DNA of 36,669 nt. Source: a virus. The stretch is taken from positions 1 through 36,669 of the IMG/VR virus record IMGVR_UViG_3300020021_000029; one strand, written 5' to 3'. The notes under the pieces are model-generated. The model ran no database searches, was not told the DNA's origin, and saw only the letters and a list, made by a program, of their open reading frames with translations. Positions 12,104-16,458 of this stretch are shown here, piece by piece. Every line of letters begins with the position of its first letter. Positions within the stretch are counted from its first letter, which is position 1. Made by a program: the position numbers and the translations under genes.

Positions 12104-12589
12104 ATGTCCCAAGAAACTGTGGGTAAAGTATCCCGAGACCTTCTTTTGAAAGGTGATAAAAATGATCACACCGTTGTTGAACAGATGCAAGAGCAGCTAT
12201 CGGACTATACGGCAAACCTTATCGATAAGGTGGAGCAAGGTAAAAATGTGTATAAAGGATGCTTTTACATTGTTGTAATCTTCAAGAAAGAGCGGCTGAT
12301 GGAGAATGTTCTGCGTAACTACTTCTTCCATCGTGCTACCTGTCCAACTCCTGATTATGACCAAGTTGTCTATCGCTATATACCAGAAGATGATAAGTTA
12401 GAGTTCCTTTGGACTATCCCTGCAAAAGATATTTGCTTTTACCTAAGAGATAATGCATTAATGGTAGATGAGAAGGAAAGAGCGCTTCTCCAATTCGTGC
12501 TCGAGTTCTTCGATGACACCTTGATGAAGAAAGCGAAACGATTGAATGGCGAGCTACTGCTAACACCTATGCTAGAAAAAGGAGCATAA
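12104..12589 (+). CDS. Conserved virion-region protein, 161 aa, unknown
   Basis: GGAGAA lies 5 bases upstream of ATG. It has a central β-rich region (FYIVVIFKKERLMENVLRNY) and an acidic C-terminal helix. The content is mixed and globular, with no signal peptide or catalytic motif. It lies between the Lys-rich protein and the scaffold-like gene, which starts on its last base (TAATG), so it is in the head-assembly operon. Function unknown. Confidence 0.65.
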   Translation: MSQETVGKVSRDLLLKGDKNDHTVVEQMQEQLSDYTANLIDKVEQGKNVYKGCFYIVVIFKKERLMENVLRNYFFHRATCPTPDYDQVVYRYIPEDDKLEFLWTIPAKDICFYLRDNALMVDEKERALLQFVLEFFDDTLMKKAKRLNGELLLTPMLEKGA

Positions 12590-13248
12590 TGGAAGAGTTG
12601 AATCAATTAGAATCCCCTATGGAACAAGAAATTGCCGTCCCGGCCGAACCGTCCCACCTTTCTGAAGAGCAACAACAAGCAGCAGCTCAGAAGAAAGCTG
12701 ATGACTCAGATCGTAATATTACTCGCCTTAGAGAAGATAAAAAACGTCTAGAGCGTGAACGTGATGATATGTATCGTCGTGTTCAGGAGTTTGAAGCATC
12801 AAAGCAACGTGAATTAGCACCGGATGATATTGCTGAAGGTAAAGATCTTAAGAGATTAGAAGATAAAATAGAGCGAACATTCACTGAATTGAGACTAAAA
12901 GCTCAATATCCTGACTTTGATGAGGTAGTAAACAGTGAAACTATAGCTTCTCTGCGTGATTTATACCCTGACATAGCCGCTGCGCTCCATGCAACGCCAG
13001 ATACAGAAGCAAAAGGCTCAAGCGTCTATAAGATCATCAAAAAGATGGGTATATATCGCGAAGATACCTTCAAAAATGAGAAAGAACAGGCAGTTAACAA
13101 CGCCACGAAGCCTCGTCCTCTTACCAGCGTCTCTCCTCAACAAGGGGAAAGCCCACTCGCGCGCGCTAATGCGTTTGCTAATGGACTTACCGATGAGCTA
13201 AGAGAGCAACTGCGTAAAGAAATGTACCAAGCTCGTATGAAAAATTAA
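12589..13248 (+). CDS. Scaffold-like coiled-coil protein
   Basis: 219 aa. A disordered Gln/Ala/Glu N-terminus is followed by a strong coiled coil (about residues 40-100; ITRLREDKKRLERERDDMYR). A short globular part comes next, and the basic helical C-terminus ends LREQLRKEMYQARMKN. Acidic, helical proteins with a positively charged C-terminal helix placed before the major capsid gene are typical scaffolding proteins. Here the capsid gene comes next on the same strand, after the inserted minus-strand toxin pair. The role is inferred from form and position. Confidence 0.6.
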   Translation: MEELNQLESPMEQEIAVPAEPSHLSEEQQQAAAQKKADDSDRNITRLREDKKRLERERDDMYRRVQEFEASKQRELAPDDIAEGKDLKRLEDKIERTFTELRLKAQYPDFDEVVNSETIASLRDLYPDIAAALHATPDTEAKGSSVYKIIKKMGIYREDTFKNEKEQAVNNATKPRPLTSVSPQQGESPLARANAFANGLTDELREQLRKEMYQARMKN

Positions 13249-13267: not shown

Positions 13268-13304
13268 CCCCTATACAGGCCGCTTCACCCTGTATAGGGG
13301 TTTT
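13268..13304 (+). terminator. Rho-independent terminator after the scaffold gene
   Basis: A perfect 12-bp stem (13268-13279 with 13289-13300), a 9-nt loop and TTTT directly after. It ends the head operon before the convergent toxin/immunity-like genes. Confidence 0.9.
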
Positions 13305-13309
13305 GCATT

Positions 13310-13537
13310 CTAGTCGTCATCATCCGGTAATGGATCAGGGAACTTTGTACCACACCATGGACAATACAATATTCCTTGTTTACCAGAAGAAGCGATGAAT
13401 CTAATACAGTACATGTCTCGTCTTTCTAAGTAGACAAGTCTCACTCGGCAATCATTAAGCATTTGCTTAAAGAACTCACAACACGGTGTAATACGATCTA
13501 AATGCTTATCGCACCTACATTTCAATGTAACGCGCAT
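13310..13537 (-). CDS. Small Cys-rich CPWCG protein, candidate immunity protein
   Basis: 75 aa from ATG 13537, nine bases after the toxin stop, with GAGG before it; the upstream in-frame start overlaps the toxin. An N-terminal CRC and CC cluster and a C-terminal YCPWCGTKFPDPLP could bind zinc, and the tail is DDDD. The C-terminal block resembles small CPxCG proteins (DUF6980-like, from memory) that are often encoded near phage or toxin genes. Its place, directly after a gene with a colicin E3-type RNase centre and on the same transcript, is where an immunity gene would be. It shows no resemblance to the E3 immunity protein. The immunity role is inference. Confidence 0.55.
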   Translation of the reverse strand: MRVTLKCRCDKHLDRITPCCEFFKQMLNDCRVRLVYLERRDMYCIRFIASSGKQGILYCPWCGTKFPDPLPDDDD

Positions 13538-13545
13538 TTTCCTCA

Positions 13546-15201
13546 CTATTCTCCTTTGCCAAATGAAACTCCCATTGACCATGCAGGAGTTCCTGAATGG
13601 CTTGCTCCTGAACTACTACCACTCCAGCCACCAGTTGATCCATAGTCATTAGAGTATGTACTCGATGAATCACTTGTATCATTTGACCATGATCTTGCAG
13701 AAGGTGTATAGCCTGATGGTGCAGCAGCTGGCATGCCATTAACTGGCATAGGAGGAATCACTGGCGCTACAGGTGGCGGAGTACACACAGTTCCTAGTGC
13801 ATCATTTGCATTCGGACTAGCTGCGGGCATATACACTCCTGTGTTTATATGAACTGGCATTTGATAGGTAACCGGACTATTGTCGTTATCGCTTATATAT
13901 CCTGTATCTTGCCATCCAGCAGCAGCAGGAGTTGGTGTTGTTACAGTGGTTGGCGTAGCTGGGGTCGCTTTTGCAACTTCCACAGCATCTAAAAGTTTCT
14001 TAAACTCTTTTCCCCTTTCTATAGCAGCTACTGCTACAGAAGGTTCAAATGGCTTTTGTCCTATTAAATATTCTGCAAATTGAGGATCAAAAATAGATCT
14101 TACCGCTTCTTTGAGCATTGATTCTCTGTGTTCTTGTGGGACCTTATTTGGTTCATCTGGCTGAGCAGCTTCTGCGTTGCCTTCAAGTATCCATTCTGCT
14201 GCTGCTATACCTACAATACCTCTTTTGAAGTCCCTATGACCAATTCCTGGTTTGTAGATTACTCTATCAACAGGATCTAAAGAACCAAGATGATTTCCTT
14301 TTTTATCAAGGCATTCTAGATCTCTATGACTATAATCAGGCCTCGTTTCGTATATTTCAACGCCATTCGCATCTTTTATGGGTGTCCCATTATCTTTCAA
14401 GCGCATGCCACCTTCTTTGGTAGTATAATAATCGTCTTTCATTTCTTTTTTAATGCGCTGTTTGAAATCATGAGGATTTACTTTACGCACTTTTTTATCA
14501 TCTTCAGGCTTTTTAGGACCGCCTGTACCACCAACCGCTTTAGCCGCTGCTTTAGCTATGTCTGCCTTATTAGGCTTCTTATCATTCCCATTACCTTTGC
14601 GCATTTGAACATTGGCTGCTGGCTGAACTACTGCATATACCGGTTCTTTTTTAGCCATTAGTTCTGCATACCGTGCCGTGCCGGGCCGAACTATAAATTG
14701 AGTTTCAGGATCAGTAATTGAACCATCTGGATTCCGTTCAATGGAAGGGCCAGCTTGGAAACCAGTAGTGAACGCTGCAGTTGTATCTACGATAGTAGGA
14801 CTGTTGTCGCGGAATTCTGAGTTATCAGCAGACCTTCCTTTATACGTATCCCATAACAGCCAACTAGTTAACGTTCCTAGTCCAACTCCCAATACAACAG
14901 GAGGCGCCAGTATAACAAAGCCAGCTCCTGCAGTGGCACCTGCTGCCAATGATAAAACAACGTTAATTGTAGAAGGCTCTTTAGCAACATCTTTTGCAAC
15001 ATCTACCGCCGCTGCAGGAGTCATAGCTAATGCAGGAAGACCTTTCTCTTTATTCTCAAGCATCTTCTTTAGAAGAACTCTGGAATAAGAGGTAGTAATG
15101 TGTTGAGAGAGTTTGGTGTTTGCCTTAGGATTCATTGCTCCTAATGGTAAAGAGATAAGAAGAGAGAGCGCCAAAAATTGACGCGAAAAACGTGGTCTCA
15201 T
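13546..15201 (-). CDS. Secreted protein with colicin E3-like ribonuclease centre
   Basis: 551 aa. Residues 1-23 are a Sec signal peptide (Arg-rich start, LALSLLISLPLG core, then AM). About 75-118 is a long hydrophobic Gly/Ala segment (two transmembrane spans or a pore-like region). About 200-255 is a basic linker. 260-330 resembles the colicin E3 cytotoxic RNase: Asp289, His292 and Glu296 have exactly the D-x2-H-x3-E spacing of E3 Asp510/His513/Glu517, followed by KKGNHLGSLDP like E3 GQHLGSFEP, then basic residues (HRDFKR) that may supply the catalytic Arg. From 330 on there is a helical domain and a Pro/Ser/Gly-rich tail. E3 enzymes cut 16S rRNA in the decoding site. The domain is internal rather than C-terminal. 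The gene is a minus-strand moron between head genes, with AAGGGGA before ATG. Confidence 0.65.
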   Translation of the reverse strand: MRPRFSRQFLALSLLISLPLGAMNPKANTKLSQHITTSYSRVLLKKMLENKEKGLPALAMTPAAAVDVAKDVAKEPSTINVVLSLAAGATAGAGFVILAPPVVLGVGLGTLTSWLLWDTYKGRSADNSEFRDNSPTIVDTTAAFTTGFQAGPSIERNPDGSITDPETQFIVRPGTARYAELMAKKEPVYAVVQPAANVQMRKGNGNDKKPNKADIAKAAAKAVGGTGGPKKPEDDKKVRKVNPHDFKQRIKKEMKDDYYTTKEGGMRLKDNGTPIKDANGVEIYETRPDYSHRDLECLDKKGNHLGSLDPVDRVIYKPGIGHRDFKRGIVGIAAAEWILEGNAEAAQPDEPNKVPQEHRESMLKEAVRSIFDPQFAEYLIGQKPFEPSVAVAAIERGKEFKKLLDAVEVAKATPATPTTVTTPTPAAAGWQDTGYISDNDNSPVTYQMPVHINTGVYMPAASPNANDALGTVCTPPPVAPVIPPMPVNGMPAAAPSGYTPSARSWSNDTSDSSSTYSNDYGSTGGWSGSSSGASHSGTPAWSMGVSFGKGE

Positions 15202-15241: not shown

Positions 15242-15260
15242 CTATGTATACTATATCACA
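15242..15260 (-). promoter_or_regulatory. Promoter/operator of the toxin gene
   Basis: On the minus strand TGTGATATAGT (15250-15260) is an extended -10, with TGTACA 17 bases upstream of TATAGT as a weak -35. It overlaps the 13-mer CTATGTATACTAT (15242-15254) that also precedes the RHH gene at 6483. A leader of about 40 bases results. Confidence 0.5.
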
Positions 15261-15400
15261 TCTATATATGATGTACAGTACGCGCTTAAAAAAATATATA
15301 TTATTTCCAATAGTGTGATCGGATCAGGCTATTTGATTTTTTTAATAGTCATGTAGTAGGGTGATTATGCGTACGAAGGGTCGCGCCTTCATATCCTATC
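15261..15400 (+). promoter_or_regulatory. Non-coding region upstream of the capsid leader
   Basis: An A/T-rich stretch between the divergent toxin promoter and the capsid leader repeats. TTGATT near 15334 followed by TAGTAG at 15 bp is a poor sigma70 match. A small GAAGG/CCTTC hairpin lies near 15375-15390. A capsid promoter is expected here, but I cannot fix its position. Confidence 0.3.
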
Positions 15401-15510: not shown

Positions 15511-16458
15511 ATGGCTATAACAACTACTAGTGTGTTACCAGCACCGGTACAGCAGAGCTTTAGTTATAAGCTCTTGTCCGTACCGGTACCTAACATGATT
15601 CACAAGATTCCTGCAATGCGTAAGGAAATGCCGCGTAATGGTGGTACAACTCTGCGTATGCGTAGATATAATCCTTTAGCAACGGCGATGGTACCACTGG
15701 GAAATTCCGGTGTTACTCCTCCAGGGCAATTGCTAACCGCTGTTAACATCGATGCTACTATTTCATTCTATGGCACCTACGTGCAAATAAATGAACAAGT
15801 AACATTGCAAAACCAAGATCCAGTATTGAATGAGTGCGCTGCTCGTTTGGGTGTATCGCTTCGTCAAACTGAAGATCAGTTAACGCGTGATATGCTTGCA
15901 TCAACTGCTTCATTTATTAACTGTACTGGCGGCGTAAATGGTGACACCCCTACTGAAATCACACGTTCAGACGTTGATGAAGTAGTACGTGCACTCTTGA
16001 ACAACAATGCATATACAATCCTGGATAACATTGAAGGTGAAGATAAGTTCGGTACTGCACCAGTTCGTGATGCATACTTTGCTCTTTGCTCTACTCAATT
16101 GACTGGTGACTTGGATGCGGTTTCAGGATTCATTCAAAAGAACCAATATCCAGCTCCTATGGAAGCATTACGCTCTGAATGGGGTGCAATTGGTAACCTT
16201 CGATTCCTTATCTCATCTATTGGTTCTGTATCGCCTAATGCATCAAACCTTGGTGCTAACGTATACAACATCTTCTGTGTGGGTATGGAAGCATACGCTT
16301 GTATTGAACAAGATGGGTATAGTGCTGCGTTTATTTATAGACCACCTATATACGATGGACCATTGGCGTTGAATGCTTCTGTAGGCTACAAATTTGCTGA
16401 AGTTCCACGCATAACAAACGATCTTTGGGTCATTAACTTGCGTGCAACGCTAGCATAA
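15511..16458 (+). CDS. Major capsid protein, N4-gp56 family
   Basis: 315 aa from ATG 15511 (AAGGAG 5 bases upstream); the longer in-frame start at 15361 would translate the leader repeats and is not favoured. The N-terminus MAITTTSVLPAPVQQSFSYK, then VPNMIHKIPAMRKEMPRNGG and FYGTYVQINEQVTLQNQDPV are the recognisable blocks of the N4-gp56-type HK97-fold capsid family. The C-terminal half has repeated Gly/Ala and the ending typical of the family (YKFAEVPRITNDLWVINLRATLA, split over the last 25 residues). It forms the icosahedral shell. A head protein gene follows 11 bases later. Confidence 0.9.
   Translation: MAITTTSVLPAPVQQSFSYKLLSVPVPNMIHKIPAMRKEMPRNGGTTLRMRRYNPLATAMVPLGNSGVTPPGQLLTAVNIDATISFYGTYVQINEQVTLQNQDPVLNECAARLGVSLRQTEDQLTRDMLASTASFINCTGGVNGDTPTEITRSDVDEVVRALLNNNAYTILDNIEGEDKFGTAPVRDAYFALCSTQLTGDLDAVSGFIQKNQYPAPMEALRSEWGAIGNLRFLISSIGSVSPNASNLGANVYNIFCVGMEAYACIEQDGYSAAFIYRPPIYDGPLALNASVGYKFAEVPRITNDLWVINLRATLA

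What the first reader, a model, noticed from the sequence alone, without database searches (positions are those of the whole stretch)
13310..15201. Phage moron encoding a secreted colicin E3-type RNase with an adjacent candidate immunity gene
The 551-aa product has a signal peptide, a hydrophobic Gly/Ala segment and an internal block with Asp289, His292 and Glu296. The D-x2-H-x3-E spacing and the following GNHLGSLDP match the colicin E3 catalytic centre (Asp510, His513, Glu517; GQHLGSFEP). The gene is on the opposite strand between scaffold and capsid genes with its own extended -10 promoter. A 75-aa Cys-rich protein starts 9 bases after its stop and is in the place of an immunity gene. A Sec-exported rRNase encoded by a phage, with the toxic domain in the middle instead of at the C-terminus, would be unusual. 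Possible roles are killing competing bacteria, superinfection exclusion, or acting in a eukaryotic host of an intracellular bacterium.
Basis: partly seen in the sequence, partly recalled or inferred. Interest (0 to 1): 0.8.

Follow-up and report, generated by a model that had tools for sequence, protein, structure and literature searches.

The report
Phage-borne secreted ribosome-cutting toxin with immunity gene
A phage with no detectable integrase carries, between two virion genes, a cassette for a secreted protein with a colicin E3-type ribosome-cutting domain plus a small zinc-ribbon gene that is probably its antidote; the same pair occurs in two related phages and a bacterium, which points to an unrecognised immunity family (DUF6980).

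Summary
A 551-aa ORF (13546-15201, -) has a signal peptide, a Gly/Ala-rich hydrophobic segment and an internal colicin E3-like domain with D289, H292, E296, H304 and R323. A 75-aa CPWCG gene follows 8 bases after its stop, then a strong hairpin. Pfam alone is weak for the toxin (PF09000, 15-16 bits, cut-off 22), but the domain is 35% identical (E=7e-14) to one in a related phage, L202, that passes the cut-off. The 75-aa protein passes the DUF6980 cut-off. The decisive result is the recurring pair: in phages L202 and L203, and in a gammaproteobacterium (L091) found through the toxin domain alone, an E3 domain is followed directly by a DUF6980 gene. In L211 and L214 DUF6980 genes follow a different toxin-like domain. 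A relative with a decayed active site (L004) has no DUF6980 gene. So this is a toxin-immunity cassette, and DUF6980 looks like an unrecognised immunity family. Unlike its relatives, the window's toxin has a 221-aa tail and a shortened partner, so current activity is uncertain. No integrase was found in 19 phages of the family, so simple lysogenic conversion is unlikely. The host is unproven; MAG co-binning favours Chlamydiota.

The parts
13546..15201 (-). Toxin gene P0001, 551 aa: Sec signal, hydrophobic segment, colicin E3-type domain, long C-terminal low-complexity tail
   Evidence: domain homology
15136..15201 (-). Predicted Sec signal peptide, residues 1-22 (MRPRFSRQFLALSLLISLPLGA)
   Evidence: read from sequence; similar N-termini in L202 and L004
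14848..14970 (-). Gly/Ala-rich hydrophobic segment, residues 78-118, possible membrane hairpin
   Evidence: similar segments in L004, L202, L203
14212..14526 (-). Colicin E3-type (Cytotoxic / Tox-ColE3) domain, residues 226-330
   Evidence: 35% identity to L202 domain over 106 residues, E=7e-14; family HMM E=5e-7
14314..14337 (-). D289, H292 and E296, aligned with the proposed colicin E3 catalytic triad
14290..14292 (-). H304, second histidine conserved throughout the ColE3 fold
   Evidence: conservation stated in PMC3482391
14233..14235 (-). R323, aligned with the C-terminal arginine (R545) of colicin E3
13549..14211 (-). C-terminal extension, residues 331-551, Pro/Thr/Ser/Gly-rich, absent from L202, L203 and L091
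   Evidence: alignment A4
13310..13537 (-). DUF6980-like CPWCG protein P0002, 75 aa, probable immunity protein; lacks the ~35-aa C-terminus of its relatives
   Evidence: PF22400 E=1.1e-6, 29.2 bits over cut-off 27; alignments A3 and A5
15250..15277 (-). Candidate extended -10 promoter
   Evidence: not above chance expectation
13268..13300 (-). Hairpin downstream of the pair, likely terminator
   Evidence: -23.9 kcal/mol, z=-5.65
12589..13248 (+). Scaffold-like gene flanking the slot
   Evidence: homologue in most relatives, 33-68% identity; function assigned from position
15511..16458 (+). Major capsid gene flanking the slot
   Evidence: PHROG 1357 major head protein E=8e-33; start at MAITTT

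Best explanation
A phage-carried toxin-immunity cassette. The 551-aa protein is made in the infected bacterium and exported by Sec (inferred from the signal peptide). Its hydrophobic segment probably keeps it in or helps it across a membrane (inferred). Its colicin E3-type domain (homology shown) cleaves 16S rRNA in the decoding site of bacterial ribosomes reached by the toxin (inferred). The adjacent DUF6980 zinc-ribbon protein (family and pairing shown) stays in the cytoplasm, binds the toxin domain and protects the producing cell and the phage's own translation (inferred). The most likely benefit is removal or exclusion of other bacteria or infected rivals near the phage's host (inferred, weakest step).
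For: Toxin domain: 35% identical over 106 residues to the L202 domain (E=7e-14) and 30% to L203 (E=2e-6); both pass the PF09000 cut-off (26.2 and 25.2 bits against 22). An HMM of E3 domains ranks P0001 first of 8,286 sequences including 500 shuffles of P0001, E=5e-7. D289, H292, E296, H304 and R323 all align. The AlphaFold2 model (core pLDDT about 80) ranks colicin E3 first among 350,542 PDB chains, with a second E3 entry and E. cloacae CdiA-CT in the top six, though E=0.38 is not significant. Immunity: P0002 passes DUF6980. L091 was found by its toxin domain alone and its next, overlapping gene is DUF6980, 51.9 bits, while DUF6980 occurs in only 3 of 299 sampled genomes. L202 and L203 carry the same pair in the same phage family. 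L211 and L214 have DUF6980 directly after another toxin-like domain. No other small CPWCG protein was found in 1.1 Mb of related phage loci. L004, which has H304 changed to P and lacks the H/E positions, has no DUF6980 gene in the 74 bp to the scaffold gene. Toxin-adjacent DUF6980s cluster in the tree: 2 label changes, reached by 3 of 500 shuffles, with weak branch support.
Against: P0001 itself is below the Pfam cut-off for PF09000 (15.4 bits). It lacks the Trp before the catalytic Asp and has two extra residues there. Its domain is internal with a 221-aa tail, and its partner lacks the conserved IPAEF..DEWWK.RGL end, so this copy may be decaying. L004 shows that decay of this lineage does occur. 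No activity or binding data exist. The delivery route to a target cell is unknown, and the benefit to an apparently non-integrating phage is unclear. DUF6980 also occurs as lone genes (L086-L088, L098-L100), so the family is not only immunity.
Confidence: 0.66

Rival explanations
1. A decayed or repurposed copy: the exported protein descends from an E3-type toxin but no longer cleaves rRNA, and now acts as an envelope or superinfection-exclusion protein, with P0002 a residual immunity gene.
For: Internal position and 221-aa tail, shared in kind with L004, whose active site is lost. Shortened P0002. The slot often holds other signal-peptide proteins.
Against: All five key residues are intact and an immunity gene is retained with tight spacing, in contrast to L004.
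Confidence: 0.22
2. The toxin acts on the eukaryotic (protist) host of an intracellular bacterium, not on bacteria.
For: Capsid relatives are binned in Chlamydiota MAGs, and DUF6980 genes occur in a Chlamydiota genome and a Rickettsiales (Megaera) plasmid.
Against: A co-encoded immunity gene is needed only if bacterial ribosomes are at risk. A Sec signal alone does not deliver protein into a protist. No eukaryotic targeting feature was seen.
Confidence: 0.06
3. P0002 is an unrelated small phage zinc-ribbon protein and not an immunity protein.
For: Lone DUF6980 genes exist in several genomes and phages. P0002 is a long branch in the tree.
Against: The E3+DUF6980 pair recurs in L202, L203 and L091; no other such gene was found in 1.1 Mb of related phage loci.
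Confidence: 0.12

Closest known systems
Colicin E3 / cloacin DF13 rRNase domain (Pfam PF09000 Cytotoxic; Tox-ColE3 of Zhang et al. 2012, PMC3482391)
   Same: Homologous domain; aligned D, H, E, second His and C-terminal Arg; small gene directly downstream
   Different: Sec signal and hydrophobic segment instead of colicin translocation and receptor domains; domain internal; immunity partner is DUF6980 and not Imm-Cloacin or Imm45; phage-encoded
Polymorphic toxin-immunity cassettes of Mycobacterium abscessus prophages (PMC9934374)
   Same: Exported toxin plus immunity gene carried and exchanged by phages
   Different: Those are in integrated prophages near att sites and are likely exported by type VII secretion with WXG-100 proteins; here a Sec signal, a slot among virion genes, and no integrase detected
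DUF6980 (Pfam PF22400)
   Same: P0002 and its relatives match the family above its cut-off
   Different: Family is annotated as unknown; the toxin-adjacent branch lacks the extra C..H.D..CPDVL element of lone members

Membership tests
Cytotoxic / Tox-ColE3 domain (PF09000) | Sequence match above the Pfam cut-off (22 bits) | tested here: inconclusive
   P0001 15.4-16.3 bits, below cut-off; but E=7e-14 to the L202 domain, which scores 26.2
Cytotoxic / Tox-ColE3 domain (PF09000) | Dxx[HK], E and second His conserved | tested here: met
   D289, H292, E296, H304; feature list from PMC3482391
Cytotoxic / Tox-ColE3 domain (PF09000) | All-beta colicin E3 fold | tested here: inconclusive
   Beta-rich model, pLDDT about 80 in the core; colicin E3 top-ranked but E=0.38
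Cytotoxic / Tox-ColE3 domain (PF09000) | Specific cleavage of 16S rRNA | not testable with these tools
   needs biochemistry
E-type colicin / nuclease bacteriocin | Translocation and receptor domains with C-terminal nuclease | tested here: not met
   Sec signal, hydrophobic segment, internal nuclease domain; so not filed as a colicin
E-type colicin / nuclease bacteriocin | Immunity protein of Imm-Cloacin type | tested here: not met
   P0002 matches DUF6980, not a cloacin-immunity family
Polymorphic toxin-immunity system | Toxin domain followed directly by an immunity gene | tested here: met
   Window, L202, L203, L091
Polymorphic toxin-immunity system | Shared N-terminal delivery part with exchangeable C-terminal toxin domains | tested here: inconclusive
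   N-termini of P0001 and L004 are related (E=9e-4), but no swapped toxin domain was found on the same N-terminus
DUF6980 (PF22400) | Match above the Pfam cut-off (27 bits) | tested here: met
   P0002 29.2 bits; L202 43.1, L203 42.9; L091 51.9
Temperate-phage moron / lysogenic conversion gene | Carried by an integrating phage | tested here: not met
   No PF00589 or PF00239 match in 19 large records of the family, window included; control genomes rang. Records may be incomplete.

The most novel reading that the evidence does not exclude
DUF6980 is a general zinc-ribbon immunity family that neutralises at least two unrelated toxin domains, and a non-integrating phage family spreads Sec-exported ribosome-cutting toxins with this immunity among protist-associated intracellular bacteria.
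Probability: 0.4. Interest if true: 0.75.

Novelty: new variant of a known kind. Interest (0 to 1): 0.6.

Why it matters
It gives a testable function to an uncharacterised Pfam family (DUF6980) as an immunity family of ribosome-targeting toxins. It also shows that exported toxin-immunity cassettes are carried by an abundant metagenomic phage family in which no integrase was found, where classical lysogenic conversion does not explain them. If confirmed, it would tie phage infection to bacterial warfare inside or around protist-associated bacteria.

Tried and rejected
Direct searches with P0001 or its domain in viral contigs, phages and PDB sequences found nothing. A PF09000 hit in a Chlamydiota genome (L089) is ClpB, a false positive. 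The first DUF6980 neighbours examined (L086-L088, L098-L100) are lone genes, which at first argued against immunity; L091, L202 and L203 reversed that. Fold comparison of the P0002 model gave nothing useful. Foreign origin by base composition: no deviation (GC 0.41-0.44 like its surroundings). Dependentiae as host: no evidence found and no such genome was reachable as a search centre. NCBIfam gave no useful name for any part. L085 (Methylococcaceae MAG) was not followed.

Full report
WHAT IS THERE. The 551-aa ORF 13546-15201 (-) and the 75-aa ORF 13310-13537 (-) are as described, with 8 bases between them, each with a Shine-Dalgarno-like stretch. A strong hairpin closes the unit at 13268-13300 (z=-5.65). 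The upstream extended -10 exists but is not above chance. The unit lies antisense between a scaffold-like gene and the major capsid gene (PHROG 1357, E=8e-33). The window is one virus record of 36,669 bases with portal, terminase and tail-fibre matches and an ERF recombinase.

THE SLOT. Capsid relatives are abundant: 516 in viral contigs. Among 109 distinct scaffold-capsid intervals, 77 are 450 bp or shorter and 32 hold cargo, including GroES/GroEL, a cytosine-methyltransferase-like gene, HNH-like ORFs and several signal-peptide proteins. The toxin pair is thus accessory cargo at a hotspot.

THE TOXIN DOMAIN. Pfam gives PF09000 (colicin E3) only 15-16 bits against a cut-off of 22, so by itself this is a lead. 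Better evidence came from relatives. Loci L202 and L203 belong to the same phage family (portal homologue present) and carry proteins with a Gly/Ala-rich hydrophobic segment and an E3 domain at the very C-terminus; L202 also shows a signal peptide, while the N-terminus of L203 is cut off. They pass the PF09000 cut-off. The window domain is 35% identical to that of L202 over 106 residues (E=7e-14) and 30% to L203 (E=2e-6). An HMM built from eight E3 domains finds P0001 first at E=1.5e-5; with L202 and L203 added, E=5e-7, ahead of 7,784 phage ORFs and 500 shuffles of P0001. D289, H292, E296, H304 and R323 align with the residues of this fold; Zhang et al. 2012 list R, Dxx[HK], E and a second His as conserved (PMC3482391). 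An AlphaFold2 model has a moderately confident beta-rich core and colicin E3 is its first PDB match, but E=0.38 is not significant; as the input alignment contained E3 domains, this is supporting evidence only.

THE PARTNER. P0002 matches DUF6980 above the cut-off. The first DUF6980 genes I looked at stood alone. But L091, a gammaproteobacterial locus found only through its E3 domain, has a DUF6980 gene overlapping the end of the toxin gene. DUF6980 occurs in 3 of 299 sampled Pseudomonadota genomes, so an adjacent DUF6980 gene by chance is of the order of one in several hundred thousand genes (my estimate). L202 and L203 show the same pair. L211 and L214 have DUF6980 immediately after a different, unnamed toxin-like domain. 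Toxin-adjacent members lack the extra CPDVL element of lone members and cluster in a weakly supported tree. No other small CPWCG protein was found in 1.1 Mb of related phage loci. L004, whose capsid is 93% identical to the window's, has a related exported protein in the same slot with a decayed active site (GKPIAAIDP in place of GNHLGSLDP) and no partner gene: loss of activity goes with loss of the partner.

HOW IT PROBABLY WORKS. Shown: homology of the domain, conserved residues, recurring pair. Inferred: Sec export, membrane association by the hydrophobic segment, cleavage of bacterial 16S rRNA, protection of the producing cell by DUF6980. The biological benefit is least certain. No tyrosine or serine integrase was found in 19 large records of the family, although records may be incomplete, so the cassette is probably used during infection and not in a lysogen. 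Killing or excluding other bacteria or rival-infected cells is my preferred reading.

WHAT IS ODD ABOUT THIS COPY. The E3 domain is followed by a 221-aa Pro/Thr/Ser/Gly-rich tail, and P0002 lacks the C-terminal IPAEF..DEWWKxRGL region present in all five toxin-adjacent relatives. L004 also has a tail. This leaves room for the rival that the window copy is losing or has changed its activity.

HOST. Three genome contigs carry the capsid: Simkaniaceae and Parachlamydiaceae MAGs and a Methylococcaceae MAG. The Simkaniaceae contig reads as phage along the stretch held, so this is co-binning, not a prophage junction. Chlamydiota are favoured over Dependentiae, unproven.

NOVELTY. Phage-carried exported toxin-immunity cassettes are known from M. 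abscessus prophages (PMC9934374), and E3-type domains from polymorphic toxins (PMC3482391). New here, as far as the tools reach: DUF6980 as partner (no paper in the searched library mentions DUF6980) and the setting in a phage family without detected integrase.

Noticed in passing
L094:1485-1715, L095:519-752, L096:2961-3194: A 77-aa protein (the L095 copy matches DUF7683, PF24731, E=1.7e-10) follows E3-type domains in three prophage-like contigs: possibly another uncharacterised immunity family.
   Followed up: partly
L211:4262-4849 and L214:788-1528: A toxin-like C-terminal domain (KDP.Q.VGNKD..H.G..YKLF..WIADVD.TGKVI..HK..GR) with no Pfam or NCBIfam name lies directly upstream of DUF6980 genes.
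   Followed up: partly
L046:3432-5407 and L049:7857-9753: Phage-encoded GroES and GroEL in the scaffold-capsid slot of this phage family.
   Followed up: no
L005:6419-7195, L006:8772-9356, L014:8118-8675: Slot proteins with N-terminal hydrophobic stretches and Gly/Ala-rich hydrophobic C-termini; L006 and L014 both end in LTGPV. Possibly a family of exported membrane-active cargo.
   Followed up: no
L008, L014, L016, L040, L052, L059 between scaffold and capsid: A recurrent 111-122 aa ORF with LHCKRLAIDLNLF...NRWGG.F..DGNHFE, resembling an M15-type peptidase, so the slot may be an endolysin position in many relatives.
   Followed up: no
L002:5968-6327: A DUF6980 gene on a plasmid of the Rickettsiales symbiont Candidatus Megaera polyxenophila, downstream of a TPR protein without a recognisable toxin domain.
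   Followed up: partly
L202:573-938: The capsid reading frame breaks off after about 80 residues in this contig: an assembly error or a real interruption.
   Followed up: no
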